Origin: Streptacidiphilus albus JL83
Lineage (GTDB): Bacteria; Actinomycetota; Actinomycetes; Streptomycetales; Streptomycetaceae
Direction: 5' to 3'
Assembly: GCF_000744705.1 (NCBI RefSeq)
Contig: NZ_JQML01000001.1
Span: forward strand, 4,164,017 to 4,228,016
DNA: 64,000 bases
Positions 5,065 to 25,072 of this stretch are shown piece after piece. Numbering within the stretch: the stretch's first letter is position 1; every line of letters begins with the position of its first letter. The notes beneath the pieces are model-generated. The model saw only the letters and a list, made by a program, of their open reading frames with translations, was not told the DNA's origin and did not search any database. Position numbers and translations under genes: made by a program.

Positions 5065-8000
5065 CTAGACCGGCTGGATCTCCAGCGAACGGCCGAGCCG
5101 GCGCCACTCGCGACAGGCCCGGGTGGCCGGGTGCTCGTCGCCGAGCTGCCGGATCAGCTCCTCGATCACCCGGCCGCGCAGCTCCTGCGCCTCCGAGCGG
5201 CGGCCGGAGGCGCGCAGGGTCACCGCCAGGTTGGCCTCGCAGACCACGACGTCCGGGTGGGTCGGCCCGTACCGGGCGACCAGCCCGGCCAGCGCGGTCC
5301 GCCCCAGCTCCTCCGAGCGGACCAGGTCGCCGTCCTCGCCCACCGAGTTGGCCAGGTTGAGCAGCGAGGTCAGCGTGAACGGGTGGTCCGGGCCGACCAC
5401 CCGCTCCAGGGTGCTGGTGGTGTGCTCGCCGAGCGCGACCGCCTCCTCGGCCTGGCCGCTGTCGCGCAGGTAGATGGAGACGTTCACGGCGACGGCCAGG
5501 GTGAACGGGTGCTCCGGGCCGAGCTGGGCCAGGTAGCCGTCGTAGACCTCCTGGGCGAAGTCCCGGGCCAGCTCCTTGTCGCCGGAGGCCGAGTAGTCCG
5601 CGGCCAGGTTCAGCGCGCAGGCCAGGGTGTCCGGCGCGTTCTCGCCGTAGTTGTCCAGGAACCGGGCGTAGGTCTCCTTGGTGATCTGCCTCGCCTCGCC
5701 CTCGCGTCCGGCCTTGCGGAGGGCCACTGCGAGGCTCTTGGCGTAGCGCAGCGTCGGCAGGTCCATCACCGGCACCGCCCGGTACTCCTCCTGGAACTCC
5801 TCCAGCAGCTCCACCGAGCCCCGGTAGTCGCCGAGCGCCCGCAGGTCCTCGGCCAGCGCGGCCTTGGTGGTCAGGGTGTACAGGTGGCGCGGGCCGAGCA
5901 CGGCGACGCGGCGGTCCAGGGTCTCCTGGTCCAGCTGCCGGGCCGCCTCGTAGTCGCCGGTGAAGCGGTAGTCGATGGCGAGGTTGTTGACCGTGGACAG
6001 GGTCTGCGGGTCCTCGTCGCCGAACTGCTCCTTGAACTTGTCCAATATCTCCTTGTCGATGTCCAGCGCCTCGGCGAACCGGCCGAGCGCCCGGAGGTCG
6101 GCGGCCAGGCCGCGGGCGGTCATCAGGGTGTACGGGTGGTCGGCGCTGAGCAGTTCGCGCTGCTTGTCCAGGGTCGCCTGGTCCAGGGTCAGCGCCTCGG
6201 CGAAACGGCCCTGGCTGCGCAGCACGTTGGCCATGTGGAAGCGCAGCAGCAGGGTCTGCCGGTCGTCCTCGCCGAGCTTGGCCACCCAGAGCCGGTTCAG
6301 CTCGTTGCCCAACTGCTCGGCGGCGTCCAGCTCGCCGCGCTTCCACAGGTAGCGGACCCGGTCGAGCAGCAGCTGCCGGGTGTCGGCCTGGTCGCACTCC
6401 TCGGCCCGGGAGGAGGCCAGGTGCGGCCAGATCCGCTCGAAGGCCGGCCAGTTCTCCGGGTCGTCGGTGTCGCCGACGGCCGGCCTGGCCCCCACCAGGA
6501 TGTCGTGCACCTCGTGCATGGTGCTGTCCTGCTGCAGGGGGTTCAGCTTGGACCGGATCACCGCCTGGACCATCCGGTGCACCTGGAAGGTGTTGCTGCC
6601 GGGGTCGACCTTGGCCAGCCCGTAGCGGCCGATCGCCTGGATCACCTTGCCCAGCATGAACTTGTCGCGCAGGTCCGGGTCGTAGCCGACCAGCACCTTG
6701 ATCATCTGGTCCCGGTAGAAGAGGTCCATGGAGATCGGGTCGGCCGAGAAGTAGGCGCAGAGCTCCAGCAGCCGGGCCGCGGCCGGGGCCTGCTGGGCCA
6801 GCCGCTCGATGGAGATGTTCCAGGCGACGCCGAAGACGTGCGGGTAGTCGGCGGGCTGCTGGGCCAGCGCCAGCGCCCGGACCGCCTCCTGCTGCAGCTG
6901 GGCGACGTAGGCGTCGACCGGCGTGCCGGTGGTGTTCAGCCAGGCGGCGGCCAGGCCGACGGCCAGCGGCAGGTCGCCGACGGCCTCGGCGACCCGGTTG
7001 GCGTCCTGCCGGCTGAGCCCCTTGGCCTGCCGGCACAGGTGCTCGATGCTCTCGCTGCGGGTGAAGACGTCCACTTCCAGCGGCTCGGCGTGGTTGGACC
7101 AGGCCTGGTTCCGGGAGGTCACCAGGATGTGGCCGGAGCCGCCGGGGAAGTAACGGGCGATCTTCGCCGGGTCGTCGGCGTTGTCGAAGATCAGTAGCCA
7201 GCGGTCGATCGGGCTGCCCCGGCGCAGGGCGTCACGCGCCGCCTCGGCGGCCTCGGCGACATTGTCGCCGACCCGGAGTTCGAGCTTCTTGGCCAGCTCG
7301 CCCAGCGACAGCGCCACCCGGTCCGGCTGCTCGGCCTCGATCCACCAGACCAGGTCGTAGTCGGCCATGAACCGGTAGGCGTACTCCAGCGCCACCTGGG
7401 TCTTGCCGACGCCGCCGAGGCCGTAGAGGGCCTGCGGGGGCGGCAGCACCACGGTCGTGCCGCCGCCGAGCTGGCTGCGCAGCCGCTCCAGCGCCGCCGC
7501 ACGGCCGGTGAAGGAGGTGTTACGGAACTGGACGTTCCAGATCCGCGGCCGGGTTCCCGGGAACCGGGGGCCGCTGCCCACCGGGTGCTCGACCGCGGCC
7601 AGGTCGGACCGGCCCAGCGCGCGCAGCAGCGCGGCCGCCGCCGGGGCCTCCTCCATCCGGACCAGGTCCACCGAGTTGCGGTTGCTGAACGGCGCGGTGG
7701 GCCGTACGTCGCCGACCCGGACCGGGATCAACTGCCGCCTGGTGCCGGAGGGATCCGACTTGGCCACCGACTCCCACAGGGCCTGGGCCTGCGGCGAGCG
7801 GACGTAGGAGGGCGAGAGTATGGCCACCGTCCGGTAGGAGGCGTCCATCGACCGCTCCGCCTCGGCCCGCGGGTCGGACCCGGCCGAGACGTCGCGCGGC
7901 AGCACCCGGAAGCCCGCGCCCTTGAGCACGCTCTCGATCCAGTCGGCCCACATCCGGTCCTCGGGCACGTACGAGAGGTAGAGGTCGGCCAGGACCGGCG

Positions 8001-9105
8001 GCCGGCGCCGGGTGAACGAGTCGACATAGCGCAGCCGGGTGTCCTGCGGGATGGCCGGCAGCGCGGTCACCCGCTCGTCGGTCAGCACCGCCGTCAGCCG
8101 CTCGAAGGCGGAGAGCATCGAGGTGGGCACCCCGGACTGGTCGCCGAAGGTCGCCAGGATCTCCTCGTAGGCGTAGAAGGGCCGGTAGGGGACCTCGACC
8201 GCGCCCCAGTAGCGGGTCAGCTCCTCGCCGCTCAGGCCCTGCGGCAACCCGTCGAAGCGGACCCGGGACAGCGCCCGGCCGGCGTCGACCTTCTCCTTCT
8301 CGCCGTCGTCGATGCGCATCGGCACCGGCAGGATCCGGATGTTCCGGTCGTGGTAGCGGTCAGCGATGTGCTGGGCTATGGAGGAGGCGCCGTCGATGCT
8401 CTGGTTGCTGAGGGTGAAGCAGACCACCAGGTCGTCCGGCATCTGCACGGTGCAGATCTCGGCGATGTCGGAGAGCCCGGTCCGGCTGTCGATCAGCACG
8501 TAGTCGTAGTTGCGGCGCATGTCGTCGCGCAGCGCGTCGAAGAACTGCCCGCCGTCCAGGTCGTCGTAGAACTTGTCCCAGTTGATGCTGGCCAGGGTGG
8601 CCGAGTAGTCGCTGTTCAGCCGGCCCGCCGAGAGGAAGTCCAGGCTGCCGCCGGGCTCGAACCACTGCCAGGCCAGCGGCACCGCGTGCGGGCGGACCCG
8701 GGCGAACTCGCGGTACCACTCCGGGCCGCGCTCCAGGCCGCGCAGCGCCTCCTCCCGGTACTCGGTGATCAGGTCGATCACGCCGCTGGTCGCCGCCTGC
8801 ACCTCGGGCGCCAGGAAGGGCTCGAAGAAGCGCGCGAGACCGGGCGCCTCCAGGTCCCAGTCGACGGCCAGCACCCGGAAGCCGTTGGAGGCCAGGATCC
8901 AGGCGGTGTTGGCCAGCGCCATGGTCCGACCGGTGCCGCCCTTGTACGAGTAGAAGGTGATGATGCGTCCGTTGCGATCGTCGGGGCGGGCGGCCGACTC
9001 GGGTCCGGACCGGACTCCCTCCGCCGTCGCCGCCTCGCCGTTCACGCGTTCCGCGTCCGGTCCGTCCGTCGTCCCGTGGTCGTCCGCTGCACGGTGCTCA
9101 GTCAT
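5065..9105 (-). CDS. fxsT: FxsT2: ParA-like/TIR-like/NB-ARC/TPR STAND protein
   Basis: 1,346 aa. The ATG at 9105 overlaps the fxsC1 stop by four bases (ATGA) and has GGAGGA upstream; longer readings of this frame run into fxsC1 and are not real. A hydrophilic N-terminus of about 45 residues precedes a ParA-like ATPase (KGGTGRT at 55-61, with IDSRTGLSD later). A TIR-like segment follows near residues 370-440 (LYLSYVPEDR to ILSPSY). The NB-ARC P-loop GLGGVGKT is near residue 561 and Walker B LLIFDNADD follows. TPR repeats run from about residue 930 to the end. The TIR-like segment has Leu where active TIR NADases carry the catalytic Glu. It is the last gene of fxs operon 1 and probably translationally coupled to fxsC1. 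A sensing or signalling role is inferred. Confidence 0.92.
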   Translation of the reverse strand: MTEHRAADDHGTTDGPDAERVNGEAATAEGVRSGPESAARPDDRNGRIITFYSYKGGTGRTMALANTAWILASNGFRVLAVDWDLEAPGLARFFEPFLAPEVQAATSGVIDLITEYREEALRGLERGPEWYREFARVRPHAVPLAWQWFEPGGSLDFLSAGRLNSDYSATLASINWDKFYDDLDGGQFFDALRDDMRRNYDYVLIDSRTGLSDIAEICTVQMPDDLVVCFTLSNQSIDGASSIAQHIADRYHDRNIRILPVPMRIDDGEKEKVDAGRALSRVRFDGLPQGLSGEELTRYWGAVEVPYRPFYAYEEILATFGDQSGVPTSMLSAFERLTAVLTDERVTALPAIPQDTRLRYVDSFTRRRPPVLADLYLSYVPEDRMWADWIESVLKGAGFRVLPRDVSAGSDPRAEAERSMDASYRTVAILSPSYVRSPQAQALWESVAKSDPSGTRRQLIPVRVGDVRPTAPFSNRNSVDLVRMEEAPAAAALLRALGRSDLAAVEHPVGSGPRFPGTRPRIWNVQFRNTSFTGRAAALERLRSQLGGGTTVVLPPPQALYGLGGVGKTQVALEYAYRFMADYDLVWWIEAEQPDRVALSLGELAKKLELRVGDNVAEAAEAARDALRRGSPIDRWLLIFDNADDPAKIARYFPGGSGHILVTSRNQAWSNHAEPLEVDVFTRSESIEHLCRQAKGLSRQDANRVAEAVGDLPLAVGLAAAWLNTTGTPVDAYVAQLQQEAVRALALAQQPADYPHVFGVAWNISIERLAQQAPAAARLLELCAYFSADPISMDLFYRDQMIKVLVGYDPDLRDKFMLGKVIQAIGRYGLAKVDPGSNTFQVHRMVQAVIRSKLNPLQQDSTMHEVHDILVGARPAVGDTDDPENWPAFERIWPHLASSRAEECDQADTRQLLLDRVRYLWKRGELDAAEQLGNELNRLWVAKLGEDDRQTLLLRFHMANVLRSQGRFAEALTLDQATLDKQRELLSADHPYTLMTARGLAADLRALGRFAEALDIDKEILDKFKEQFGDEDPQTLSTVNNLAIDYRFTGDYEAARQLDQETLDRRVAVLGPRHLYTLTTKAALAEDLRALGDYRGSVELLEEFQEEYRAVPVMDLPTLRYAKSLAVALRKAGREGEARQITKETYARFLDNYGENAPDTLACALNLAADYSASGDKELARDFAQEVYDGYLAQLGPEHPFTLAVAVNVSIYLRDSGQAEEAVALGEHTTSTLERVVGPDHPFTLTSLLNLANSVGEDGDLVRSEELGRTALAGLVARYGPTHPDVVVCEANLAVTLRASGRRSEAQELRGRVIEELIRQLGDEHPATRACREWRRLGRSLEIQPV

Positions 9106-10667
9106 GGCATTCCTCCGCCGGGTCCATGGTCCTGCTGCCGGGGGTCGTCGTGGTCGATGCGCGGGTCGGGCCGCCGGACGGGTGGGTCCGGAGCGGACGA
9201 GTGGGACGGGGGGAGGTGCTCCGGGGTGTCCGGCGCGAACGGGTCGACCGCCCCGAAGTCGGTCGGCCCGTAGTCGGTCGGCCCGTAGTCGGTGGGTCCG
9301 AAGTCGGTGGCTCCGTAGTCGGTGGGGCCTGCGTCCGCCGCGCCGGTGGCCGGCAGGCCGAAGCCGGGCATCCCCGGCGGCACCGCCCGCCACTGCCCGC
9401 CGCGCGAGGGGTCGGGTCTGGCGTCCCGCAGGCTCGGACGGGACGAGGACCCGCTCTTGGCCGGGGAACGCGGCCGGCGGTGCTCCTCGTAGGCGTGCAT
9501 GGCCCGCTGCGCCGCCCGGGGCAGCTCCTCCGAGAAGGAGCGCAGGGTCGGCAGCTCGGTGGTGCTGTGGAAGGAGGGCTTCAACCCCCTCCGGCTGGAC
9601 CGGAAGGTGTCCGCCTGCAGTCCCCGGAGCTCGACCTCGCCGGTCGCGCGGTCCGGGTCGTTCTCGCACCAGGGCTCCATCACGCTCACCCAGGGCGGGT
9701 TCACCCGGTCGAACTCCCGGGCCAGCCGCTGCTTCTCCGGGTTCAGCAGTGCCCAGCGGTCGAACAGCAGGAGCTCCGGGGCCTTGGGCTCGACCGCCGC
9801 CAGTAACTCCTCGGCGGTGTCCTCGAAGGCGTGGATGCTCGGCTGGAAGTCCAGCTGCCGGGCCACCCTGGCGGCGTGCTCGGCCAGCGTCCGGCCCTCG
9901 TCCGGGCCCGGACGGTAGGGCTGCCAGTCGACCGGGCGGTCGCCGTAGCAGGAGCCGTCGGACCGGCCCGGGAGCGGCACCGACCGGTCCGCCGCCAGCA
10001 CCGAGATCCGCAGCTCCCGGCCCTTGTCCTGGGTCTCGAAGGCGCTCGGCAGGCTCGGGTAGTCCTGCTGCTCGGTGTCGATCGGGATCATCGCCTGCTT
10101 GGCGACCTCGACTATCCGCTTGGCGATCCCGTACAGGGCCATCTCGTAGGCCTCGTGCAGGTAGCCGAACTTGAGCAGCGCGAACAGGCCCTCGTCGGCG
10201 TAGCCCCGGCCCAGACCCGGGTGCTTGTACTGGAGCCGGCTGGCGACCTCGGGCAGGCTGTCGACGTCCTGCGGGATCCACAGCACCGGCACCACCCCGC
10301 TGGTCAGGTTGGCGTCCGCCTTGCGCAGGTACACCGGCCTGCGTTCGAAGGCGTACCACTCCTGGCCGCAGTTGACGCTGCGGAAGTAGCGCGGGGAGTA
10401 CAGCGGGACGAAGACCCGGCAGCGCGCCAGCGCGTCCGAGAGCACATCCGGCCAGGGCTCGCCGGGACGCATCTGCCGGTCCATGAAGCCGATCTCCGGC
10501 GTGCTCGGCAGGTCGCCGAAGTGCACGATCAGCCGGCGCAGATCATTGAAGAACTTGTCCACCCAGATGTCCGGGTCGGGCTCGCCGGCCGCACCGTACA
10601 CCGGCGTGTGCGCATAGCTGAGGAAGAAGTACGGCCGGTCCTCGTCCCGTCCAGCCCGCTCGGCCAC
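9102..10667 (-). CDS. fxsC: FxsC1: TIR-like protein of FxSxx-COOH system
   Basis: 521 aa. The GTG start at 10667 was chosen because GGGGGAGG lies five bases upstream and the conserved start of the fold (RPYFFLSYAHTP) follows closely; an ATG at 10763 is in frame but has no such site. The first 200 residues are a TIR fold. Its key stretch has S-P-x-Y, a second Ser, then NCGQEW, which keeps the Glu-Trp pair used by catalytic TIRs. A second FxsC-type domain follows, then a low-complexity tail with TDYG/TDFG repeats encoded by 15-bp DNA units at 9254-9328. Codon 288 is TTA (9804-9806), a rare codon in this GC context and a possible bldA control point. It lies 126 bases below the acyltransferase gene and overlaps fxsT2. 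Confidence 0.88.
   Translation of the reverse strand: MAERAGRDEDRPYFFLSYAHTPVYGAAGEPDPDIWVDKFFNDLRRLIVHFGDLPSTPEIGFMDRQMRPGEPWPDVLSDALARCRVFVPLYSPRYFRSVNCGQEWYAFERRPVYLRKADANLTSGVVPVLWIPQDVDSLPEVASRLQYKHPGLGRGYADEGLFALLKFGYLHEAYEMALYGIAKRIVEVAKQAMIPIDTEQQDYPSLPSAFETQDKGRELRISVLAADRSVPLPGRSDGSCYGDRPVDWQPYRPGPDEGRTLAEHAARVARQLDFQPSIHAFEDTAEELLAAVEPKAPELLLFDRWALLNPEKQRLAREFDRVNPPWVSVMEPWCENDPDRATGEVELRGLQADTFRSSRRGLKPSFHSTTELPTLRSFSEELPRAAQRAMHAYEEHRRPRSPAKSGSSSRPSLRDARPDPSRGGQWRAVPPGMPGFGLPATGAADAGPTDYGATDFGPTDYGPTDYGPTDFGAVDPFAPDTPEHLPPSHSSAPDPPVRRPDPRIDHDDPRQQDHGPGGGMP
9254..9328 (-). repeat. Five 15-bp in-frame tandem repeats in fxsC1
   Basis: Five imperfect 15-bp units (plus-strand form CGAAGTCGGTCGGCC) encode the TDYGP/TDFGP pentapeptides in the tail of FxsC1. 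The unit is in frame, so copy number could change without breaking the gene. Confidence 0.85.
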
Positions 10668-10793
10668 CCGCGCCTCCCCCGATCCGCCGGCACAGCCGCC
10701 ATGCGTCATGTACCGGCCCATTCGACCCGGTGTTTGACTGAGCGTCAACCATGCCTTGTGCAAGAACCATTGAACACCTGCTGGGGCCGTGCG

Positions 10794-11600
10794 TCAGTGG
10801 GGCGGGAAATTCCGGCGCTCCCGGAGCCAGCGGTCGGCGGCGTCCACGGCGGGCGCCACCGGCACCAGGAAGCACTCGGCGGCGCCCACCCAGCCCTCGC
10901 CGAACTTCACCGACTGCCGTACCGCCGAGCCCAGTTCCGGGAAGTGCCGGTCGTCGAACCGGATTCCCTCGAACTCCGCCCATTCGGCCGTCCCGTCCTG
11001 CCCGGCGACCCGGCAGCGGTACAGCTGGGTGGGCGGCTCCGGCTGTCGGCAGTCGGCCAGGTGGTAGGGGCTCAGCAGCCAACTGGGGATGCCCAGCAGC
11101 AGGGCCGAGGCCCCGAGTTCATACAGGCGGCCGATGGGTGACTCCTCGCCGAGGTGGCAGGAGCGGGGGTGGACGGCGGTGATCCGCGCCGCCTCCGGGC
11201 CGACCGCGGCGAAGGAGCACTGCGGATGGCTGCTGCGCAGGGCCCCGCGGGTGCGGCGGACCTCCTCGGAGAGTGCGCCCATCGTCGGCGAGCTGGGTGT
11301 GGTCGCCGGATCGAAGGCGGGCATCGCCGCCAGGAAGCGTTCCAGCGCCCCGCGGTCCAGGCCGGCCGTGGCCTCCCGGTGGGCCCGGGAGCTCAGCGAG
11401 TTCTCCGGCGTGCCGGTGTACGCGACCAGCGTGCCGGTCGGACCGAGCGCCCGCCGCAGCGCCTGCACCACCGTCCGCGCGCCGCCCCGGACCGGGCCGA
11501 GCCTCCGCATCGACGCCTGCACCAGCAGCACGCCGCCCTCGGTCACTCCCAACTCCCGCAGCTCCCGCAGCAACTGCGTCCCGCCGATCGCCCCGCTCAT
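10794..11600 (-). CDS. AAC(3)-family acyltransferase in fxs operon 1
   Basis: 268 aa. The fold is that of aminoglycoside 3-N-acetyltransferases: an N-terminal LLVQASMRRLG stretch, GTLVAYTGTPENS, and the family signature HP-x-x-SF-x-A-x-G seen here as HPQCSFAAVG. The ATG abuts the fxsB1 stop directly (TGAATG), so it is cotranslated with the peptide maturase. Position in the operon suggests that it acylates the FxsA1 peptide or a related amine rather than giving antibiotic resistance; that is inference. No counterpart exists in operon 2. The mixed AAC(3) superfamily also includes biosynthetic acyltransferases, which fits this setting. Confidence 0.85.
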   Translation of the reverse strand: MSGAIGGTQLLRELRELGVTEGGVLLVQASMRRLGPVRGGARTVVQALRRALGPTGTLVAYTGTPENSLSSRAHREATAGLDRGALERFLAAMPAFDPATTPSSPTMGALSEEVRRTRGALRSSHPQCSFAAVGPEAARITAVHPRSCHLGEESPIGRLYELGASALLLGIPSWLLSPYHLADCRQPEPPTQLYRCRVAGQDGTAEWAEFEGIRFDDRHFPELGSAVRQSVKFGEGWVGAAECFLVPVAPAVDAADRWLRERRNFPPH

Positions 11601-14105: not shown

Positions 14106-14291
14106 TCAGATGGAGGAATTGAAACCGGCGACGGCGAGCCGATCCGCCGGGTTCTCCGCGAGAACGCGAGCGGCCATGGAGCGCTGGGCCGAGGCGTCCT
14201 GCCCGGTCATCTGGTCCAGCGACCGGCGGCGGCCCTTCTTTGGCGCGTCGATAACCGTACGGGAAACAGTGGTCTGGAGAACGAGGTTCAC
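14106..14291 (-). CDS. fxsA: FxsA1: FxSxx-COOH precursor peptide
   Basis: 61 aa. It ends in FNSSI, an exact fit to the F-x-S-x-x-COOH signature. The GTG start has AGGATG about seven bases upstream; a nearby ATG at 14299 is out of frame and stops after three codons. The N-terminal part is a polar leader with a basic cluster (PKKGRRR). The Phe-Asn-Ser triplet is the expected site of the FxsB1 cyclophane. It is the first gene of operon 1, followed immediately by fxsB1. A 1.1-kb gene-free stretch with inverted repeats lies upstream and probably holds the operon promoter. Confidence 0.93.
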   Translation of the reverse strand: MNLVLQTTVSRTVIDAPKKGRRRSLDQMTGQDASAQRSMAARVLAENPADRLAVAGFNSSI

Positions 14292-14509: not shown

Positions 14510-14522
14510 AGACGGCTGTCGG

Positions 14523-15389: not shown

Positions 15390-16364
15390 ATGAGGGTCGA
15401 GCCCCACCAGGCCGGTTCAGCGCAGGGGCGCACCGGCGAAGCCGTCCTCCCCGACCGGTCCGAGGCCCCCGGCTTCCACTCCGTCGCGGGTCCGGGCGGG
15501 CGTACCCTCGCGGTCGAGACCTGGGGCGACCCTCAGGGCGATCCGGTCTTCCTGATGCACGGCACCCCCGGCAGCAGGCTGGGCCCGGTGCCCCGACCGG
15601 TCGAGCTGTACCGCCGCGGTGTCCGGCTGATCAGCTACGACCGCCCCGGCTACGGCCAGTCGAGCCGTCAGGCCAACCGCCGGGTCAAGGACGCCGCCGC
15701 CGACGTCGGGAGCATCGCGGACGCCCTGGGTCTGGATCGCTTCTCCGTCGTGGGCCGCTCCGGCGGAGGTCCGCACGCACTGGCCGCGGCGGCGCTGCTC
15801 AGCGACCGGGTGCGCCGGGTCGTGGCGATGGTGTCGCTCGCCCCGCCGAAGGCCGAGGACCTGGACTGGTACGCGGGCATGGTCGACTCCAACGTCACCG
15901 CCTACCAGCGGGCCGGCCGGGAGTCCTACCAGGAGTTCCAGGAGCTGCTCAAGGACAGGCGGCTGCCGATCGCCGGGGAGAACGGCGATCCGGGGCATCT
16001 GATCCAGGAGCTCAACCAGGAGTGGGAGGACTCGGACCGCAATGTGGTGGCCGACTCCGGCATCCGGGTGCAGCTGCGCGACTCCGTCTTCGAGGCCCTG
16101 CACTACGACCCGCAGGCCGGCGGCTGGGTCGACGACGTGGTCGCGCTGACCAGCGACTGGGGATTCCGTCCCGAGGACATCCCGCCCACCGTCAAGACCC
16201 TGCTGTGGCACGGGCAGCAGGACCACTTCACCCCCTCCGACCACACCCGCTGGCTGGGACGGCACATCGACCACGCGACGGTGGTGGTCGAGGAGGCGTT
16301 CGCCCACTTCACCGCGCTGACCCGGTTGCCCGACGTGCTCACCTGGGCGGTTTCACGGGGCTGA
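15390..16364 (+). CDS. alpha/beta hydrolase (copy 2, associated with fxsT)
   Basis: 324 aa from the ATG at 15390, chosen because AAAGG lies six bases upstream; a longer frame from 15198 has a Pro/Ser-rich non-conserved N-terminus. Motifs: HGTPGSR, nucleophile elbow GRSGGG, probable acid in WHGQQDHFTP, late His in AFAHFTAL. It is paralogous to the hydrolase at 4113-5027 but has an extra N-terminal segment and a short insertion in the cap region. It is convergent with fxsT3, as copy 1 is with fxsT2. The substrate is unknown. Confidence 0.87.
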   Translation: MRVEPHQAGSAQGRTGEAVLPDRSEAPGFHSVAGPGGRTLAVETWGDPQGDPVFLMHGTPGSRLGPVPRPVELYRRGVRLISYDRPGYGQSSRQANRRVKDAAADVGSIADALGLDRFSVVGRSGGGPHALAAAALLSDRVRRVVAMVSLAPPKAEDLDWYAGMVDSNVTAYQRAGRESYQEFQELLKDRRLPIAGENGDPGHLIQELNQEWEDSDRNVVADSGIRVQLRDSVFEALHYDPQAGGWVDDVVALTSDWGFRPEDIPPTVKTLLWHGQQDHFTPSDHTRWLGRHIDHATVVVEEAFAHFTALTRLPDVLTWAVSRG

Positions 16365-16375
16365 CCCCGCCCCGC

Positions 16376-16410: not shown

Positions 16411-16428
16411 CCGTTCACCCGCGCCTCC

Positions 16429-19400
16429 TCACCACTGCTGGAGTTCCAGGATCCGGCTCACCCGGTTGCCCGCCCTGATCCGGAGGTAGTCCGGGTGACC
16501 GTTGCCGAGTGCGCGGGCCAGGTCCTGCATCAGGTCGATCCGCAGCCGCTGCGCCTCCACCGGTCGTTCCGCGTCCTCCAGCGTGACCGCGAGATTGGCG
16601 GTGCAGACCAGCGCGTCCAGGTTCTTCTCGCCGTAGCGCGCCTTCAGCAGTTCCGTCGCCCGGCGCGCGCCGGCCTCCGACTCCTCGTAGAGGCCCAGCT
16701 CACCCTGGATGTTGGCCAGGTTGGCCATCGAGCAGAGCGAGAAGGGGTGGTTCTCCCCCAGCACCCGGACCAGCAGCGACAGCGTCCGCCGTCCCAGTTC
16801 CAGCGCCTCCTGCAGCCTGGCCGGGTTCTTGCCGGCCCCGCGCAGGTACACCACCACGTTGTCCGCGGCGCCGAGGGTGCTCGGGTGCTCCTCCCCCAGG
16901 TCGCGCAGATACTCCCGGTGCACCTCGGCGGCCTGCTCCAGGGCGGCGTCGGCCTGCCCGGTCGCCCACAGGTCCGCGGCGTGGCCCAGCCGGCAGAGCC
17001 GGGTCTCCGGGTGGCCGTCGCCGTACTGGGCCTTGTAGGTGCTGTAGGTCGCCCGGCTCAGCAGCAGCGCCTCGTCGGCCCGGCCGACCAGGCGCATGGA
17101 GACGGCCAGACTGCGCGTCAGCGCGAGGGCGTCGATGTCCTGCTCGCCCAGCAGTTCGTCGCCGCGCTCCTTCAGCAGCCGCAGCCGGTCCAGCGCGTCG
17201 AGCAGGTTGCCGAGGTCGCGCGTGTCCCGCGCCAGCAGGCCCTGGGAGCGCAGGGTCTCCCGGTGCCCCGGGCCCAGCTTCCTGGACCACCCCTGCGCGG
17301 TGGAGGTGTCGATCTCCAGTGCCTGGAAGTAGTTGCCCGCGAGCCGGTGGTCCACGGCCAGGTTCCCCGCCATCAGCAGGGTGCGGCTGCTGAACTGGCC
17401 CAGCGTCGTGCGCATGGTCGCGTAGGTCTGCTCGTCGAGCTCCAGCGCCTCGGCGAACCGGCCCAGCGCCCGCAGGTCGGAGCCCAGGTTCCCGGCGGTC
17501 ATCAGTGCGTGCACGTGCCCCTGGCCGTTCATCTCGGTCTGCCGCCGCAGGGTGTCCTGGTCCAGCCGCAGCGACTCCTGGTAACGGCCCTGCATCCGCA
17601 GCGCGTTGCCGAGCTCGGTGCGCAGCCGCAGCGTGACCCAGTCCGGCTCCTGCTCGGCCGCCGACGCGGTCCAGCGGGCGTTCAGGTCCTCGGCCAGGAC
17701 CTGGGCGGCGGCATGGTCGCCGCTGCGCCACAGGTAGCGGACCCGGTCCAGCATCAGCTGCCGCACGTCCTTCTCCAGGCAGCGGTCCGCCCGGGAGGGA
17801 ATCAGGTGCGGCCAGATCTGCTCCATCCGGAAGCGGTTGACGTCCTCGTCGACCTCGCCCTCGATCCGCTCGCGCGCGTTCACCAGCAACTGGTGGACCA
17901 GGTGCTGGGTCTGCTCGCGCTGCTCGGCGGACAACGAGTCCCGCACCACGGCCTGGACCAGCCGGTGCATCTGGACGCTGTCGTCCCCGGTGTCGATCCG
18001 GGCCAGCGAGAGCTTGCCGATCTGCTCGAACACCGTGCTGAAGCTGCTGGGGTCGATGATCGTCGGGTCGAACTGCTCCAGGTGCCGACGCAGGGCGTCG
18101 GTCCGCAGCAGGGTCCGGGCGATCGGCTCCGGGCCGAAGTGGGCACAGATCTCCAGCAGCCGGGCGGCGGCCGGGGAGGTCGCCCGCAACGCCTCGATCG
18201 ACACCTGCCAGGTGGCCTTCACCGAGTCCGGGTTCTCGCCGTCCGCGCCGAGGTCGAAGGCGACGCCGAGCCTTCCGTCCAGCAGTCGCAGGTACTCCTC
18301 GACCGGGATGTGCGTGGTGTCCATGTAGGCGGCGGCCTGCTCGACGGCCAGCGGGAGGTCGCCCAACCGCTCGGCGACCCGGTCCGCCTGCTCCAGGGTG
18401 AGCTGCGGAACCCGGCCGCGCAGGTGGTCGGTGCTCTCCTTGCGCTCGAAGACGTCGACCGGGACCAGTTGGGCGTAGTCCCCCCAGGCGTGGTTGCGCG
18501 AGGTGATGATCACGTGGCCCTGGCCCTGCCCCTGGCCGCCGCTCGGCATGTAGGCACTGACATCGGCGGGCTCGCGGGCATTGTCGAAGATCAGCAGCCA
18601 GCGCGCGGTCGGACGGTCCTGGCGCAGCGCATCCACGGCCGCGTTGGCGGCGACGGTCGTCACGTTGGAGACCGTGACCCCCGTCCCGCCGGGCAGCCCG
18701 CCCGCGTTGGCACCGGTGACGACGGATCGGCGCTCGATCTCGCGGGCCAGTTCCGCCAGGGAGTCGGCCACCATCTCCGGCTGGTCCGCCGAGATCCACC
18801 AGATCAGGTCGTAGCTGGACCGGTAGCGGTGCGCGTACTCCTTGGCGAGCTGGGTCTTCCCCACACCGCCGAGGCCGTGCAGCGCGGCCGGCACCAGCAC
18901 CGTGTGCTGCCCGCCCTGGAGTTGGTCCCGCAGCCGGTCCAGCTCCTCGATCCGGCCGGTGAAGGTGCGGTTCCGGGTGGGCACGTTCCAGATCTGCGGC
19001 TGGCTGGCCGGGAAGCGGGCGGTCACGCCCATGTTCTCGGTCGGCAGCCCCCGGCGGTCCGCGTCGACTCCGCGGAGCAGCGTCTGGGCCGCCGCCGTGC
19101 TGCTCAGTCCGGCCAGGTCGACCAGCTTGCTGTCGCTCTCGCCGACGCCGCTGAACACCTGGTCGAGCTGGACGTCGCCGACCCGCACCGCCAGCGGCCT
19201 GATCGTCCCGGACAGCTGGCTGCGGGCCACGATGCGCTGCCAGAAGGCCGCCGCCCTGGCCGACCGCCGGAAGGACCTGGAGAGGACGGCGACGACCCGG
19301 TGCGCGCCGTCGACCAGGCGGTCCTCCTCCAGGCTCTCCACCCAGTCCGTCCCGATCTCGGTGCTGGTCACCTGGTAGCCGCTGGTCTGGAAGACGTCCA

Positions 19401-20463
19401 TCATCCACTCGGCCCAGTTGCGGTCCTCGCGCGCGTAGGCGAGGTGCAGGCCCGAGGCGACGGTGTGCTGCCGGGTGTAGCCCTCGCTCCCGCGCTTGCG
19501 CAGGGCCTCGTCCATCCGCGGCATCGCGGTCACCTCGCCCCGGGTGATCACGTCCGTCAGTCGTTCGCAGGCGGCCAGCAGCGAGCCGCTGACGCCGGGC
19601 GCGTCACCGAAGGTCGCCAGGATCTCCTCGTAGGCGTAGAAGGGCTTGTAGGGGAACTGGATGGATCCCCAGTACTCGCCGGGATCGGGCTCGGCCAGGT
19701 TGTCGAGGATCCTGGCGAACTTGCGGCGGGCCAACTCCCGTCCCGCTTCCGCCTTCTTGAGCTCGCCCTCGTCGATGCGCATCGGCACCGGCAGGATCCG
19801 GGACGGCCGGGGGCGCTTCCGGTCGAGGATCCAGTTGGCGATCCGCGAGGCCCCGTCGATGCCCTGACTGCTCAGGGTGAAGCAGACCACCAGGGTGTCC
19901 GGCAGGTCCGTGGTGCAGACGCTGGAGCTGTCGCTGAGACCGGTGCGGCTGTCGATCAGGATGTAGTCGTACTCGCGTCGCATGTCCTCGCGCATGGCCT
20001 CGAAGAACTGGCCGCCGTTGCGCTTCTCGTAGAAGTCGTCCCACTTGATGCTGCCCAGGGCACTGGAGTAGCGCTGGTCGATGTGGCCGGTGGGAACGAA
20101 GGTCAGGCTGCCGCCGGGAGGGAAGTGCGCCCAGTCGAGCTCCACCGTGTGCCGGGCCACCGAGGCGTACTGCGGGATGAGTTCACTGATCTCGCTCTGC
20201 GACCAGCGGCGGCGCGAGAACATGTCGCTGTACTCGGTGATCATGTCGATGACCCCGGTGCAGTGGTCGAGCTTCTTGGGGTCGAGGAACGGCCGGAAGA
20301 AGCTGTCGAGGCCGGGCGCCTCCAGGTCCCAGTCGACCGCCAGCACCTTCTTCCCCGAAGCGGCGAGGATCCACGCGGTGTTGGCCAGCGCCATGGTCCG
20401 CCCGGTTCCGCCCTTGTAGGAGTAGAAGGTGATGACGTGTCCGTTGCGGCCGTTGTCCGTCAT
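16429..20463 (-). CDS. fxsT: FxsT3: ParA-like/TIR-like/NB-ARC/TPR STAND protein
   Basis: 1,344 aa. The ATG at 20463 overlaps the upstream TIR-like gene by ATGA and has AGAGGAA before it. Domains: ParA-like ATPase with KGGTGRT at 17-23 and IDSRTGLSDSSS; a TIR-like segment around residues 335-410 (LHLAYAREDR to VLSRSF); an NB-ARC P-loop GLGGVGKT near residue 530 with Walker B LLIFDNARE; then TPR repeats to the C-terminus. In the TIR-like segment Phe replaces the catalytic Glu (AAFWQRI). It is closest to FxsT1. It is the last gene of fxs operon 2, probably coupled to the TIR-like gene before it. It probably links the peptide system to an unknown input or output. Confidence 0.92.
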   Translation of the reverse strand: MTDNGRNGHVITFYSYKGGTGRTMALANTAWILAASGKKVLAVDWDLEAPGLDSFFRPFLDPKKLDHCTGVIDMITEYSDMFSRRRWSQSEISELIPQYASVARHTVELDWAHFPPGGSLTFVPTGHIDQRYSSALGSIKWDDFYEKRNGGQFFEAMREDMRREYDYILIDSRTGLSDSSSVCTTDLPDTLVVCFTLSSQGIDGASRIANWILDRKRPRPSRILPVPMRIDEGELKKAEAGRELARRKFARILDNLAEPDPGEYWGSIQFPYKPFYAYEEILATFGDAPGVSGSLLAACERLTDVITRGEVTAMPRMDEALRKRGSEGYTRQHTVASGLHLAYAREDRNWAEWMMDVFQTSGYQVTSTEIGTDWVESLEEDRLVDGAHRVVAVLSRSFRRSARAAAFWQRIVARSQLSGTIRPLAVRVGDVQLDQVFSGVGESDSKLVDLAGLSSTAAAQTLLRGVDADRRGLPTENMGVTARFPASQPQIWNVPTRNRTFTGRIEELDRLRDQLQGGQHTVLVPAALHGLGGVGKTQLAKEYAHRYRSSYDLIWWISADQPEMVADSLAELAREIERRSVVTGANAGGLPGGTGVTVSNVTTVAANAAVDALRQDRPTARWLLIFDNAREPADVSAYMPSGGQGQGQGHVIITSRNHAWGDYAQLVPVDVFERKESTDHLRGRVPQLTLEQADRVAERLGDLPLAVEQAAAYMDTTHIPVEEYLRLLDGRLGVAFDLGADGENPDSVKATWQVSIEALRATSPAAARLLEICAHFGPEPIARTLLRTDALRRHLEQFDPTIIDPSSFSTVFEQIGKLSLARIDTGDDSVQMHRLVQAVVRDSLSAEQREQTQHLVHQLLVNARERIEGEVDEDVNRFRMEQIWPHLIPSRADRCLEKDVRQLMLDRVRYLWRSGDHAAAQVLAEDLNARWTASAAEQEPDWVTLRLRTELGNALRMQGRYQESLRLDQDTLRRQTEMNGQGHVHALMTAGNLGSDLRALGRFAEALELDEQTYATMRTTLGQFSSRTLLMAGNLAVDHRLAGNYFQALEIDTSTAQGWSRKLGPGHRETLRSQGLLARDTRDLGNLLDALDRLRLLKERGDELLGEQDIDALALTRSLAVSMRLVGRADEALLLSRATYSTYKAQYGDGHPETRLCRLGHAADLWATGQADAALEQAAEVHREYLRDLGEEHPSTLGAADNVVVYLRGAGKNPARLQEALELGRRTLSLLVRVLGENHPFSLCSMANLANIQGELGLYEESEAGARRATELLKARYGEKNLDALVCTANLAVTLEDAERPVEAQRLRIDLMQDLARALGNGHPDYLRIRAGNRVSRILELQQW

Positions 20464-21725: not shown

Positions 21726-21757
21726 CTACCCGACTCCGTCCGTGGCCATCCGCTTCC

Positions 21758-22471
21758 CTAACCGAGGTCCGGCACCGGGGGCGGGGCGCCGGCCGGGCCG
21801 CTCAGCATGTGCTCGAACCTGTCGGCCGTGGGCTCGAACGGGTTCTTCGCAGCGGCCACGTCCATGGGCTCGCCCGGCTCGGTGACCGTCCTCCGGGCGA
21901 CCCGCCTGATCCGCTCGGCCAGCAGCCAGAGCGACCGGTCGCAGTCCTCCCACAGGTCCGGACGCGCCAACAGGGCGTACAGGCCCAGCCGTTCGTAGGA
22001 CTCGGGGAACTCGACGTCCCAGAACTGGTACTTGCTCGCGATCTCGGGCACCGGCAGGTCGCCGAACGGGATCCAGTGCACCGGGACGATGGCCTTGGTG
22101 TCGGTCTCGACGCCCTCCACCCGGGCGACCCGCTGCTCGAAGACCCACCACTCCTTGCCGCACCACTCGCTGGCGAAGAAGCGCGGCGACAGCACCGGCA
22201 CGAACACCTTGCAGCGGGCCAGTTCGACCGACAGCCGGTTCTGCCAGTCCTCGCCCAGCCAGATCCGACTGTCGATCATGCCGATGTCGGCGTCCTTCGC
22301 CAGCGGCGTGGCCATCTCCCCGAGATGGTCCCAGAGCGCTTCGAAGAGGCGCTCCACCGGACCGCGCGGCCCGCGCGCGGGATGCCTGCGCGTGGGCGGG
22401 GCAGGCGGATGCGCATGGCTCAGGAAGAAGTAGGGACCGCGATCCTCGCCCGCGTTCGTGCCCATCCGCAC
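21758..22471 (-). CDS. Short FxsC-type TIR protein (operon 2)
   Basis: 237 aa from the GTG at 22471; the ATG two codons later (22465) is an equally possible start. It consists of a TIR fold alone: GPYFFLSHAHPP at the N-terminus, then S-P-R-F-F-A-S-E-W-C-G-K-E-W, the best match in this window to the active-site region of NAD-cleaving TIR domains. It lacks the second domain of FxsC1. It lies 67 bases below the fxsB2 stop; that gap contains TAGGAT, a possible -10 element, so an internal promoter cannot be excluded. NADase activity is inferred from the motif only. Confidence 0.85.
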   Translation of the reverse strand: MRMGTNAGEDRGPYFFLSHAHPPAPPTRRHPARGPRGPVERLFEALWDHLGEMATPLAKDADIGMIDSRIWLGEDWQNRLSVELARCKVFVPVLSPRFFASEWCGKEWWVFEQRVARVEGVETDTKAIVPVHWIPFGDLPVPEIASKYQFWDVEFPESYERLGLYALLARPDLWEDCDRSLWLLAERIRRVARRTVTEPGEPMDVAAAKNPFEPTADRFEHMLSGPAGAPPPVPDLG

Positions 22472-22538
22472 CCCCGACTCAGCCCGATCGAGTCAGATCC
22501 TAGCTGAACCGTGACGTGACGTACCATCATCTGTCTTA

Positions 22539-24881
22539 CTAATCTGTCAACTTGAGTCGCATTTCGATCCATTCCAGAAACTGCGAGCCGATGTCGGTCA
22601 ACGCCCGGGAGCCCCGCAACTGCTCCGCCGCCGCGGTCACCTCGCTCCGGAGGCGTTCGTGCCGCCGCAGCGCGTCCGGGTCCGCGTCCGACCGCGCCCG
22701 CGACATCCAGTAGTCCATCACCGCGAGGTGCGCGTACACGCCCTGCAGCACGCCCTCCGGGGGGCGCGGGTCGGGACGCCAGCCCACCGGGATCAGCACC
22801 TCCGCGTCCGGCAGGCAGAACCGGTCCAGGTCCAGCAGCGCGTCCAGCTTCACGTGCTGGAGCTCGTGGACCAGCAGCAGCGCCAGCCGCTCGGCCGAGA
22901 CCGGCCGCGCGATGCCCACCGCGCCGAAGCCGTAGCGGGGGGTGCCGCTGACCTCCTCGCCGGGCGCCCCCGGCCGCTGCGGAACGATCGAGCGGAGCCC
23001 TGCGGCCAGACCCCCGGCGTAGGCCGGCAGTCTCGCCCCGACGATCCGCCAGGCCTCCCGGAGCGCCGCCTCCCAGGCGGCGAATCCGGACTCGTCGGGA
23101 CGCTCGACCGGGAGCATCCCGGCGGCCGGATCGGTGTCCTCCAGGGCGACACCGACCGTCCCGTCCACCACGAGCCGGCGCAGCGGCTCCCAGCGTCCGC
23201 CCACCCGCTCCGCCCAGTCCGCCAGCGCCGTCGCCGGATCGGCCGAAGGCGGCAGGTCCACCGGCACCGGGTCCCCGGGGATCCGGTCGAAGACCACCCG
23301 GCCCCAGGTCGGCAGGGACAGCACGCCGTTCCGGCGCACCGGGACCGGGACCGGCCGGTGCCAACCGGCGTGGAGCACCGCCGCTGCGGCCGTCCGGGCC
23401 AGGGCGGCCTCCACGTCCGCGCCCCGGAATCCGCCGGGCAGGTCGAGGCAGCCGCGCAGCCAGTACTGCACGAACGGCTGCGCCAGCACCGCGTCCAGCG
23501 CCGCCGGAGCCTGCGCGTCCAACGCGGTGAGCAGCCGCGGGACCTGGTCGTCGGGGCACAGGCCGATGACCCGCGCCAACAGGCCCCGGTTCAGCTCCCC
23601 CTGACTCTCCGCCAGCGCCTGCACGGCTTCGGCGCTGCCGGGCCCCTGGGCCAGCTCGGCGAACTGCTCCTCGCGGAGGACCAGGGCGTGCACCGGCGCC
23701 GCCGTGCCGGACGGCCCGGTCCGCCGCGCCGTTCGCGCCGCGTCGGCCGCCTCCAGGCCGCCGATGAAGTCCAGCAGGTCGTCGCAGTAGACCGACGGAT
23801 GGTCGAAGCCTCCGCCGCCGGGCTCGGAGCGGTAGCGGTGCGCGTAGAGGCCGCCGCCGCAGGCCCGGACGACCGGACAGTCGCGGCACTGGCGGCACAG
23901 CCCGTCGAGGCCCTGCTGCCGGGCCAGAATGCCCGGATGGGCCGCGATCTCGTCGAAGGAGTCGGCGAAGACGTCCAGGCCGGTGGCCGGAGCCCCGTCG
24001 AAGGCCGTCTTCAGCGAGTCGGCCTGCTCCAGCGTTCCGTCGACCTCGATGACCACCAGGTCGACCGGCTCCAGGCCGAAGGACTCGCTCCGGCTCCGGC
24101 CGCCGGCCAGCGCCTGGTGCAGCGACTCGAAGATCCGCACCGGCACCGCCCGGCCGTCCTCCTCCCAGCGCTCGTGGACCACCCGGAGCCAGTCCGCGTA
24201 GGGGGTCCGCACCCCCTCCGGGCGCAGCGGCGGACGGTCCCAGGTGGCGTGCGGCAGCAGGAAGTCGAGCTGTGGCGGCGCCAGCTCCACGAGCGCGTCG
24301 TAGACCTGGCGCGGATCGTTGCGGACGTCGACGGTGCACAGCAGTCCGGCGAAGAGGTGGCGGTAGCGCGGGCGTTTGAGCAGCTGGACCGCCCGCATCA
24401 CCTCGGCGTGGCTGCTCCGCCCGTTGCGGTAGCGGCGGTGGAGGTCGTTGGCCCGGCGGTCGCCGTCCAGGGAGATGCCGACCCGGATCCCGTAGTGCAG
24501 GAAGAGCTCGCAGAACGCCTCGTCCAACCGCACCCCGTTGGTGTGCACGCACAGGTCCAGCTCGGCCACGCCGTCCAGGGCCCGGTGCAGGATCTCGGCG
24601 GCGCGGCGCAGCAGTTCGTGCCCGGCCAGCAGCGGTTCCCCGCCGTGCAGCACGACGTAGACCACCGGCAGCGCGTGGGAGCGGGCGTGCTCGGCGATCC
24701 TGGCCGCGGCCGCCCGCAGCACGGCGTCCGAGGCCGCGCCGGGACGCCCGCGCCAGCTGCTGTCCTGGTGCTCGTACACGTAGCAGTGGTCGCAGGCGAG
24801 GTCGCACCGGCTGTGCAGTTTCAGCACGAACTGGCGCAGCGGAACCACCGGCCCGCCGATCGGGCGAAGGTCCGGCGTCAC
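22539..24881 (-). CDS. fxsB: FxsB2: radical SAM/SPASM peptide maturase fused to an HExxH domain
   Basis: 780 aa from the GTG at 24881, whose GTGA overlaps the fxsA2 stop; the frame stays open further upstream but crosses fxsA2. Radical SAM cysteines are C26, C30 and C33 (CDLACDHC). A SPASM cysteine set follows (CRQCRDCPVVRACGGG). The C-terminal HExxH motif is HELQH at residues 672-676. It is a clear paralogue of FxsB1, with the same IDGTLEQ-type region (here VDGTLEQADSLKTAFDGAP). Its peptide substrate is FxsA2, whose C-terminus departs from the canonical form. Translation is probably coupled to the precursor. Confidence 0.92.
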   Translation of the reverse strand: MTPDLRPIGGPVVPLRQFVLKLHSRCDLACDHCYVYEHQDSSWRGRPGAASDAVLRAAAARIAEHARSHALPVVYVVLHGGEPLLAGHELLRRAAEILHRALDGVAELDLCVHTNGVRLDEAFCELFLHYGIRVGISLDGDRRANDLHRRYRNGRSSHAEVMRAVQLLKRPRYRHLFAGLLCTVDVRNDPRQVYDALVELAPPQLDFLLPHATWDRPPLRPEGVRTPYADWLRVVHERWEEDGRAVPVRIFESLHQALAGGRSRSESFGLEPVDLVVIEVDGTLEQADSLKTAFDGAPATGLDVFADSFDEIAAHPGILARQQGLDGLCRQCRDCPVVRACGGGLYAHRYRSEPGGGGFDHPSVYCDDLLDFIGGLEAADAARTARRTGPSGTAAPVHALVLREEQFAELAQGPGSAEAVQALAESQGELNRGLLARVIGLCPDDQVPRLLTALDAQAPAALDAVLAQPFVQYWLRGCLDLPGGFRGADVEAALARTAAAAVLHAGWHRPVPVPVRRNGVLSLPTWGRVVFDRIPGDPVPVDLPPSADPATALADWAERVGGRWEPLRRLVVDGTVGVALEDTDPAAGMLPVERPDESGFAAWEAALREAWRIVGARLPAYAGGLAAGLRSIVPQRPGAPGEEVSGTPRYGFGAVGIARPVSAERLALLLVHELQHVKLDALLDLDRFCLPDAEVLIPVGWRPDPRPPEGVLQGVYAHLAVMDYWMSRARSDADPDALRRHERLRSEVTAAAEQLRGSRALTDIGSQFLEWIEMRLKLTD

Positions 24882-25072
24882 CTGGCCGAGGAGCCGAACG
24901 CGGCCACTCCCGTGTTCTCCGCAGCGCGGCCGGTCGCGGCGGCCCGCTCCAGCATCGCGGTCAGCAGCGGCCCGCCCTCGGCGGCCATGAGCGCCAGCGG
25001 AACCCGGGTCCCGGGCCGTCCACCGCCCGTCGGCCCGGTCCGGGTGAGCACACGCATCTCGGGTGAGTTCAT
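24878..25072 (-). CDS. fxsA: FxsA2: FxSxx-type precursor peptide with an extended C-terminus
   Basis: 64 aa from the ATG at 25072, chosen for GGAAGG and GGA upstream and for a length like FxsA1; an in-frame ATG at 25132 would add 20 residues. The C-terminus is FGSSAR, one residue longer than F-x-S-x-x-COOH. A VPLALM stretch and an Ala/Arg-rich region precede it. The stop overlaps the fxsB2 start (GTGA), which explains why the end is constrained. The F-G-S triplet remains a plausible cyclophane site. Confidence 0.85.
   Translation of the reverse strand: MNSPEMRVLTRTGPTGGGRPGTRVPLALMAAEGGPLLTAMLERAAATGRAAENTGVAAFGSSAR

What the first reader, a model, noticed from the sequence alone, without database searches (positions are those of the whole stretch)
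5065..25072. Two complete but unlike FxSxx-COOH peptide operons side by side
Seen: fxsA1-fxsB1-acyltransferase-fxsC1-fxsT2 and fxsA2-fxsB2-short TIR-TIR-like-fxsT3 lie in tandem on one strand. Known: FxsB enzymes install cyclophanes on F-x-S peptides; the role of the TIR and STAND partners is not established. Inferred: two separately specific peptide signals, each read by its own TIR/NLR-like module, perhaps a self-recognition or defence system. The loss or gain of the acyltransferase and the split FxsC show they have diverged.
Basis: partly seen in the sequence, partly recalled or inferred. Interest (0 to 1): 0.85.

Follow-up and report, generated by a model that had tools for sequence, protein, structure and literature searches.

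The report
Twin peptide-and-receptor alarm operons
A soil actinobacterium carries two diverged copies of a known but unexplained gene set that makes a tiny cross-linked peptide next to immune-receptor-like proteins, and comparison with relatives adds two further partners, a hydrolase and a predicted membrane-pore protein, which points to an internal self-destruct or defence circuit.

Summary
These are named families, and a 2020 paper already describes such standalone systems. Corrections: FxsA2 ends FGSSAR (one residue too long for FxSxx-COOH) and the FxsC is doubled, not split. New here: (1) an alpha/beta hydrolase lies tail-to-tail with fxsT (median stop-to-stop gap 57 bp). It is found in 123 of 128 genomes with fused-type FxsB against 7 of 121 others, and in 18 of 18 readable loci outside Streptomycetaceae; its Ser-Asp-His triad is invariant in 129 of 129 rows. 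(2) SLATT genes, predicted membrane effectors, occur in 59 of 80 family loci; two lie beside fxsT1 just outside the window. (3) The catalytic-position Glu is kept in 160 of 168 FxsC TIRs but lost in the TIR of FxsT. (4) FxsC and the FxsT NB domain differ between the operons more than FxsB predicts. Best reading: an intracellular TIR/SLATT conflict module gated by a cyclophane peptide; function untested. New variant of a known kind.

The parts
24878..25072 (-). fxsA2: 64-aa precursor ending AAFGSSAR-COOH (FxSxxx, one residue longer than the family motif)
   Evidence: no NCBIfam hit; place directly before fxsB2 and FxS tail; 1 of 7 long tails among 155 found by pattern in 162 operons (7 operons gave no tail, and the two locus sets share genomes)
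22539..24881 (-). fxsB2: radical SAM/SPASM cyclophane synthase fused to aKG-HExxH hydroxylase domain (HELQH intact)
   Evidence: TIGR04269 550.7 bits, TIGR04267 148.9 bits; alignment
21758..22471 (-). fxsC2a: short TIR protein, catalytic-position Glu kept
   Evidence: NF040588 147.5 bits, cut-off 130; PF13676
20460..21725 (-). fxsC2b: TIR plus weak FxsC C-terminal domain
   Evidence: NF040588 111.5 bits (under cut-off 130), TIGR04276 26.8 (under 55); PF13676 31.2 over its cut-off of 28
16429..20463 (-). fxsT3: MinD/ParA-like + degenerate TIR + NB-ARC + TPR; nearest relative is fxsT1 (64%)
   Evidence: NF040586 864.6 bits
15198..16364 (+). ABH1: alpha/beta hydrolase, tail-to-tail with fxsT3, 64 bp between the stops (homology begins about 15480, so the true start may lie downstream)
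   Evidence: PF00561; 53% to ABH2
14106..14291 (-). fxsA1: 61-aa precursor ending FNSSI-COOH
   Evidence: TIGR04268 26.2 bits, cut-off 28
11601..14078 (-). fxsB1: radical SAM/SPASM + aKG-HExxH (HEFQH intact)
   Evidence: TIGR04269 575.1 bits, TIGR04267 151.4; solved relatives 22nu (hydroxylase part) and ChlB 9gm3
10794..11600 (-). AAC(3)-fold acyltransferase, likely a tailoring enzyme
   Evidence: PF02522 206.8 bits; best solved relative FrbF 3sma; in 68 of 80 family loci
9102..10709 (-). fxsC1: TIR plus FxsC C-terminal domain (start codon uncertain: 10721, 10709 or 10667)
5065..9105 (-). fxsT2: MinD/ParA-like + degenerate TIR + NB-ARC + TPR
4113..5027 (+). ABH2: alpha/beta hydrolase, tail-to-tail with fxsT2, 37 bp between the stops
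   Evidence: PF00561; triad S98-D246-H274 invariant in 129 of 129 rows
1..3865 (-). fxsT1: orphan third receptor, continues past the left edge; its 3' end faces a pair of SLATT genes outside the window
   Evidence: NF040586 819.2 bits for the part in the window; full match G000 4163847-4167860; SLATT matches G000 4161832-4162827 and 4162860-4163801

Best explanation
Each operon is an intracellular conflict (self-destruct or defence) module. Shown by sequence: a short precursor (FxsA), a fused cyclophane synthase/hydroxylase (FxsB), a TIR protein with its catalytic-position Glu (FxsC), an NLR-like receptor (FxsT) whose own TIR has lost that Glu, a tail-to-tail alpha/beta hydrolase with an intact triad, and SLATT genes in the same island. 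Inferred: FxsB cross-links and may hydroxylate the FxS tail, and the tail stays in the cell and sets the state of FxsT. When FxsT is triggered it assembles FxsC into an active NADase, whose ADP-ribose-type product or NAD depletion acts through the SLATT membrane effector. The hydrolase trims or removes the peptide or an acyl group, and the AAC(3)-like enzyme of operon 1 is an optional tailoring step. The two operons and the extra fxsT1 form a tandem array in which the receptor side has diverged, so each operon probably listens to its own peptide.
Against: No biochemistry. SLATT is missing from 21 of 80 family loci, though flanks are limited. AAC(3) is missing from 12 of 80 family and 39 of 80 named loci. 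In 10 of 71 readable family loci no convergent hydrolase lies within 5 kb (8 of them have one elsewhere in the locus, 2 none), and 4 of 61 readable named loci have none. Two columns after the lost Glu, FxsT TIRs often have Glu or Asp (72 and 32 of 150), so a shifted active site is not excluded. PADLOC gives no hit for FxsC or AAC(3), and only a candidate family for FxsT and distant viperin hits for FxsB. FxsT is common in genomes without FxsB (45 of 57), so receptors of this type do not always need the peptide.
Confidence: 0.45

Rival explanations
1. The operons make an exported peptide (antibiotic or pheromone), and FxsC/FxsT are its regulators or immunity genes.
For: FxsB belongs to a family that makes natural-product-like cyclophanes; AAC(3)-fold tailoring and a hydrolase fit a biosynthetic pathway.
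Against: No transporter among the 18 neighbour families held by 8 or more family loci; a secreted alpha-lytic-type protease recurs in only 14 of 80. The conserved tail is mostly five residues.
Confidence: 0.2
2. Guard model: modification of FxsA reports the state of SAM, iron-sulphur and 2-oxoglutarate/oxygen metabolism, and FxsT is held off by the modified tail and fires when modification fails, for example during phage takeover.
For: Enzymes of the FxsB type need SAM, Fe-S, Fe(II), 2-oxoglutarate and oxygen (family knowledge; HExxH chemistry summarised in PMC12636437, passages read); enzyme and receptor are coupled in one operon.
Against: No binding data. FxsC-FxsT modules without fxsB lie next to full operons.
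Confidence: 0.15
3. Operon 2 is a fast-evolving or decaying duplicate without its own specificity.
For: Long FxsB2 branch, no AAC(3), FxsC2b under cut-offs, non-standard FxsA2 tail, FxsT3/FxsT1 lineage without a close full-length relative in 394 family genomes (two candidates scored per genome).
Against: All frames intact, HExxH and TIR Glu intact, own convergent hydrolase kept, translational overlaps kept.
Confidence: 0.15
4. The hydrolase and SLATT genes are bystanders kept beside the operon by shared descent.
For: Part of the family set shares one chromosomal site (citrate synthase in 25 and PdxH in 21 of 80 loci).
Against: Hydrolase convergent in 18 of 18 readable loci of other families, and rare in genomes without a fused-type FxsB (7 of 121); it is duplicated with the operon in this window; SLATT occurs upstream-divergent or downstream-convergent.
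Confidence: 0.1

Closest known systems
Standalone FxSxx peptide-processing systems of actinobacteria (eLife 2020, PMC7159879; section 24 read, other passages by term search; figures and source data not seen)
   Same: Small FxSxx protein, radical SAM-SPASM enzyme, HExxH domain, AP-ATPase with TIR and TPR plus a MinD/ParA-like domain; peptide proposed as toxin or signal that amplifies a conflict system
   Different: The text I saw calls the HExxH domain a peptidase; its alpha/beta hydrolase mentions concern MoxR-vWA and GAP1 systems and its SLATT mentions concern GAP1 systems, not these. Here there are two tandem operons, an orphan receptor and an FxSxxx tail
Fused radical SAM/aKG-HExxH cyclophane synthase-hydroxylases, ChlB/ChlBH (Nat. 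Chem. 2024, seen only as cited in PMC12636437)
   Same: FxsB1 matches the ChlB radical SAM domain (9gm3) and a solved HExxH domain (22nu)
   Different: Hydroxylation there is on Asp and His; the last six residues of FxsA1 and FxsA2 hold neither, so the hydroxylated residue here is unknown
TIR-SLATT pairs (PMC9503650, one passage read; PMC7159879, passages)
   Same: TIR with catalytic-position Glu near a 2TM SLATT gene
   Different: Here with an NLR-like protein and a RiPP-type peptide operon
Thoeris and other TIR NADase defence systems
   Same: TIR fold with a Glu at the expected place
   Different: No ThsA/ThsB-like partner found; ThcB4 score of 15.7 bits against a cut-off of 220

Membership tests
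FxSxx-COOH cyclophane peptide system | FxsB family radical SAM/SPASM maturase over the NCBIfam cut-off | tested here: met
   575.1 and 550.7 bits, cut-off 370
FxSxx-COOH cyclophane peptide system | Precursor ending F-x-S-x-x-COOH, operon 1 | tested here: met
   FNSSI; TIGR04268 26.2 bits, just under the cut-off of 28
FxSxx-COOH cyclophane peptide system | Precursor ending F-x-S-x-x-COOH, operon 2 | tested here: not met
   FGSSAR, one residue longer; no NCBIfam hit. Operon 2 works like, but is not strictly, an FxSxx-COOH system
FxSxx-COOH cyclophane peptide system | FxsT (NF040586) receptor beside the maturase | tested here: met
   1032.8 and 864.6 bits, plus orphan 819.2 (part); cut-off 300
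FxSxx-COOH cyclophane peptide system | FxsC N- and C-terminal domains over cut-off | tested here: inconclusive
   fxsC1 met (199 and 135.9 bits); fxsC2a N-terminal met (147.5); fxsC2b under both cut-offs (111.5 of 130, 26.8 of 55)
FxSxx-COOH cyclophane peptide system | Cyclophane formed on the F-x-S tail | not testable with these tools
   needs mass spectrometry and NMR
aKG-HExxH peptide hydroxylase | Family score and HExxH motif | tested here: met
   151.4 and 148.9 bits, cut-off 40; HEFQH and HELQH
TIR NADase | TIR fold and catalytic-position Glu in FxsC | tested here: met
TIR NADase | NAD cleavage | not testable with these tools
   enzyme assay needed
SLATT effector | SLATT_3 and SLATT_1 domains over Pfam cut-off beside the array | tested here: met
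   144.7 and 111.7; 130.9 and 75.7 bits, cut-offs 26.3
SLATT effector | Membrane permeabilisation in response to a nucleotide signal | not testable with these tools
   a published prediction; needs an assay
Thoeris | ThsA plus ThsB pair | tested here: not met
   no PADLOC Thoeris hit for the nine proteins given; ThcB4 15.7 bits against a cut-off of 220

The most novel reading that the evidence does not exclude
FxS systems are seven-part, peptide-gated immune circuits: a made-in-house cyclophane peptide holds or triggers an NLR-like receptor (FxsT, itself enzymatically dead), which switches on a separate TIR NADase (FxsC) whose product opens a SLATT membrane effector, while a tail-to-tail alpha/beta hydrolase removes the peptide. 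Tandem arrays such as this one evolve new peptide-receptor pairs the way plant NLR clusters do.
Probability: 0.25. Interest if true: 0.88.

Novelty: new variant of a known kind. Interest (0 to 1): 0.6.

Why it matters
The chemistry of FxsB-type enzymes is being worked out (PMC12636437 and its citations), but in the searches listed I found no tested function for their peptides. A hydrolase found in 123 of 128 genomes with the fused-type FxsB, plus a predicted TIR-to-SLATT output, turns 'function unknown' into a concrete circuit with a testable enzyme (FxsC), a testable effector (SLATT) and a candidate for an unassigned processing step. Two diverged copies in one chromosome give a natural test of peptide-receptor specificity. 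If right, a ribosomal peptide natural product would act as an internal immune ligand.

Tried and rejected
HExxH state against FxsA tail: in the first 80 loci an intact HExxH seemed tied to F-x-S-S-I and a lost one to F-x-S-A-L. In 162 operons there were 73 intact/S and 38 lost/not-S, but also 19 intact/not-S and 18 lost/S (some of the last from a strict motif pattern or broken frames), 7 long tails and 7 without a tail, so it follows clades and is not claimed.

I looked for FxsB2 among other two-FxsC operons (L045, L084, L050). It does not group there: its nearest row is FxsB1, 72%, in an unresolved part of the tree. FxsT3 pairs with FxsT1, and L054 (G003) is next by path; long branches make the deeper order unsure.

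Paper searches (terms for FxsB/FxSxx-COOH, FxsA with cyclophane and TIR, triceptide/HExxH, SLATT with radical SAM, SjiA/SjiB, FxsC/FxsT) gave one paper on these systems that I used, PMC7159879. PMC12734244, a fungal adaptation paper, also holds the term FxSxx-COOH and was seen only as a listing. The library lacks most subscription journals, so 'not described' for the hydrolase or SLATT link holds only for those searches. NCBIfam has no family over cut-off for the hydrolase (generic hits far below cut-off).

The first named-genome scan with fxsT3 found nothing; the allowed second scan used an FxsB alignment. The SLOG-like gene near SLATT (22 of 80 family loci) has no Pfam hit; its label is my recollection of a motif.

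The FxsC C-terminal domain: the structure search was filled by TIR matches to residues 1-182, so that part is barely tested.

Full report
WHAT IS THERE. The window lies in a 9.9 Mb chromosome. Its genus is probably Streptacidiphilus: genome G046 of the same genus has a contig of the same length (754,832 bases) as Streptacidiphilus jiangxiensis NZ_FOAZ01000001.1. On the minus strand stand operon 2 (fxsA2, fxsB2, two TIR proteins, fxsT3; 25072-16429), operon 1 (fxsA1, fxsB1, an AAC(3)-fold acyltransferase, fxsC1, fxsT2; 14291-5065) and an orphan third receptor fxsT1 from 3865 past the left edge. Three gene pairs overlap by four bases, as in co-translated operons: fxsA2/fxsB2, fxsC1/fxsT2 and fxsC2b/fxsT3. 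Three details are not. FxsA2 ends FGSSAR, one residue more than F-x-S-x-x, and matches no NCBIfam model, while FxsA1 ends FNSSI. The FxsC of operon 2 is doubled rather than split, since both small proteins hold a TIR domain. And plus-strand genes stand beside the operons.

KNOWN PARTS. FxsB is the cyclophane-forming radical SAM family fused to an aKG-HExxH hydroxylase domain. Both copies have the HExxH motif (HEFQH, HELQH) and solved relatives exist (ChlB 9gm3, 22nu). FxsC and FxsT are named NCBIfam families. The eLife 2020 paper PMC7159879 (section 24 read, other passages by term search; figures and source data not seen) already describes standalone FxSxx/radical SAM/AP-ATPase systems with a MinD/ParA-like domain and suggests that the peptide is a toxin or signal that amplifies a conflict response.

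CO-CONSERVATION. In 249 genomes of the family, FxsB (E 1e-100 or better) is found in 192 and FxsT (1e-60 or better; three candidates scored per genome) in 235. Reading the lists, 190 of 192 FxsB genomes have FxsT, but so do 45 of 57 without FxsB. From the printed, truncated match list I picked 93 places by hand (92 with an open frame of 700 residues or more; one genus group thinned) and fetched 80 (L045-L124). Of these 80, FxsT lies downstream in 73, FxsC in 71 and the AAC(3) gene in 68. So the AAC(3) gene is optional and its absence from operon 2 is not unusual; in the 80 named loci it is in 41.

NEW PARTNER 1, A TAIL-TO-TAIL HYDROLASE. The plus-strand genes at 15198-16364 and 4113-5027 are alpha/beta hydrolases 53% identical to each other, each ending next to the end of an fxsT (gaps 64 and 37 bp). 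A profile of the two finds the same gene in most loci. Of 71 family loci with a readable fxsT end, 56 have it convergent within 1.5 kb, 61 within 5 kb and 69 somewhere in the locus. The ten exceptions are five loci where it lies upstream on the same strand, one on the same strand just downstream, two where it faces an upstream orphan fxsT instead, and two with none in the locus. In a second set of 80 named loci (some are the same genomes as the first set) 57 of 61 readable ends have it, including 18 of 18 outside Streptomycetaceae (Streptosporangiaceae, Micromonosporaceae, Actinomadura, Actinospica and others). Over the 125 FxsT frames that have a convergent one within 6 kb, the median stop-to-stop distance is 57 bp, 105 are within 300 bp, 13 overlap and 2 abut; three loci are counted twice. 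By genome, the hydrolase (1e-60 or better) is in 123 of 128 genomes with a fused-type FxsB (judged by score, E 1e-148 or better), 4 of 64 with only other FxsB and 3 of 57 with none. Ser98, Asp246 and His274 are invariant in 129 of 129 rows, some from the same genomes. Its nearest solved relative is an esterase-annotated protein, 9wlv (171 bits). As internal control, the commonest other neighbours (a SIS-domain protein, citrate synthase, an aminotransferase, PdxH) occur in 26, 25, 24 and 21 of 80 loci against 61 for the hydrolase in the same clustering.

NEW PARTNER 2, SLATT. The same clustering shows a 324-residue family in 56 loci whose representative is SLATT_3 plus SLATT_1 in Pfam. A profile finds it in 59 of 80 family loci and 31 of 80 named loci, either downstream (behind the hydrolase where both are seen) or upstream and divergent from fxsA. 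In this genome a pair of SLATT genes lies beyond fxsT1, the nearer ending 39 bp from the end of fxsT1, just outside the window. By genome the window-type SLATT (1e-50 or better) is in 86 of 128, 3 of 64 and 1 of 57; more distant SLATT types are not counted there. Published predictions call SLATT a nucleotide- or ADP-ribose-regulated membrane effector and note TIR-SLATT pairs (passages of PMC7159879 and PMC9503650).

DIVERGENCE OF THE PAIR. Between operons 1 and 2 FxsB is 72% identical. Among other operon pairs with like FxsB identity, FxsC domains are much more alike (medians 54% and 38%, against 35% and 19% here; 0.2% and 0.1% of background pairs are as low). The FxsT domains are also low: NB 48% against 60% (1.2%), MinD-like 59% against 67% (2.6%), TPR 43% against 52% (3%), TIR 34% against 46% (6%). 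The hydroxylase domain is ordinary (23% of pairs as low). Background pairs are not independent. FxsT3 and FxsT1 are nearest to each other (64%); full-length matches in 394 family genomes stay at 49% or less (two candidates scored per genome, list truncated), and in the 14 genus genomes, searched more deeply, only partial matches reach 52 to 57%. Extra FxsC-FxsT modules without a seen FxsB stand beside full operons in genus members G002 and G030 (20 kb upstream checked), with partial ones in G058 and G019 (the G019 contig ends there). In 9 of 80 family loci, Kitasatospora-type, an unfused FxsB with its own FxsC-FxsT stands directly upstream. Tandem arrays are therefore a habit of this system, not a quirk of this window.

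MECHANISM. The most economical reading is an internal alarm: a peptide made and kept in the cell, a receptor, a TIR enzyme, a membrane effector and a hydrolase. The parts and their linkage are shown; each functional arrow is inferred. The hydrolase is a candidate for the processing or clearing step, because the HExxH domain once taken for the peptidase is now known in a relative to be a hydroxylase (PMC12636437, passages read; that paper also shows backbone cleavage by other HExxH enzymes, so a cleaving role of this domain is not excluded). A guard version, in which modification keeps FxsT silent, and an export version remain open.

VERDICT. A real and well-read observation of a known kind of system, with an unusual pair and two partners that I did not find described in the searches listed. 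New variant of a known kind.

Noticed in passing
L134-L136 with L120, L067, L070 (and L152, L165, L170, L171, L204): Unfused FxsB and HExxH genes behind an FxsC-FxsT pair lie directly upstream of the fused FxsB operon: two unlike FxsB systems side by side in Kitasatospora-type genomes.
   Followed up: partly
L127 and L069 (G002:C113): Three receptor modules in a row (two FxsC-FxsT modules without a seen fxsB, with two hydrolase genes between them, plus a full operon).
   Followed up: partly
L058 15894-16406 and 21 other family loci: Small gene near SLATT with a VTGHR motif that looks SLOG-like to me (recalled) but has no Pfam match.
   Followed up: partly
L068, L079, L080, L045, L056, L215: Other FxsA-like tails longer than FxSxx (FQSFSR, FQSFSSK twice, FQSSLL, FQSKIKG, FESSIG), so the C-terminal length is not fixed.
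   Followed up: no
L173 (Acidobacteriaceae MAG contig): A fused FxsB relative (51% identity) on a contig labelled as outside the actinobacteria, or a binning error; the contig is too short to tell.
   Followed up: no
L059 1808-3034 and 13 other family loci: A secreted alpha-lytic-type protease gene (Pfam, one representative) recurs near the operon.
   Followed up: no
fxsT1, fxsT2 and fxsT3 of the window (MinD-like domain): The KGGTGR domain of all three FxsT proteins matches the PADLOC candidate family PDC-M28B (E 2.6e-23 to 5.2e-25).
   Followed up: no
G000:C1 7445642-7445968 and 7717188-7717487: Two further TIR_2 domains elsewhere in the same genome, not examined.
   Followed up: no
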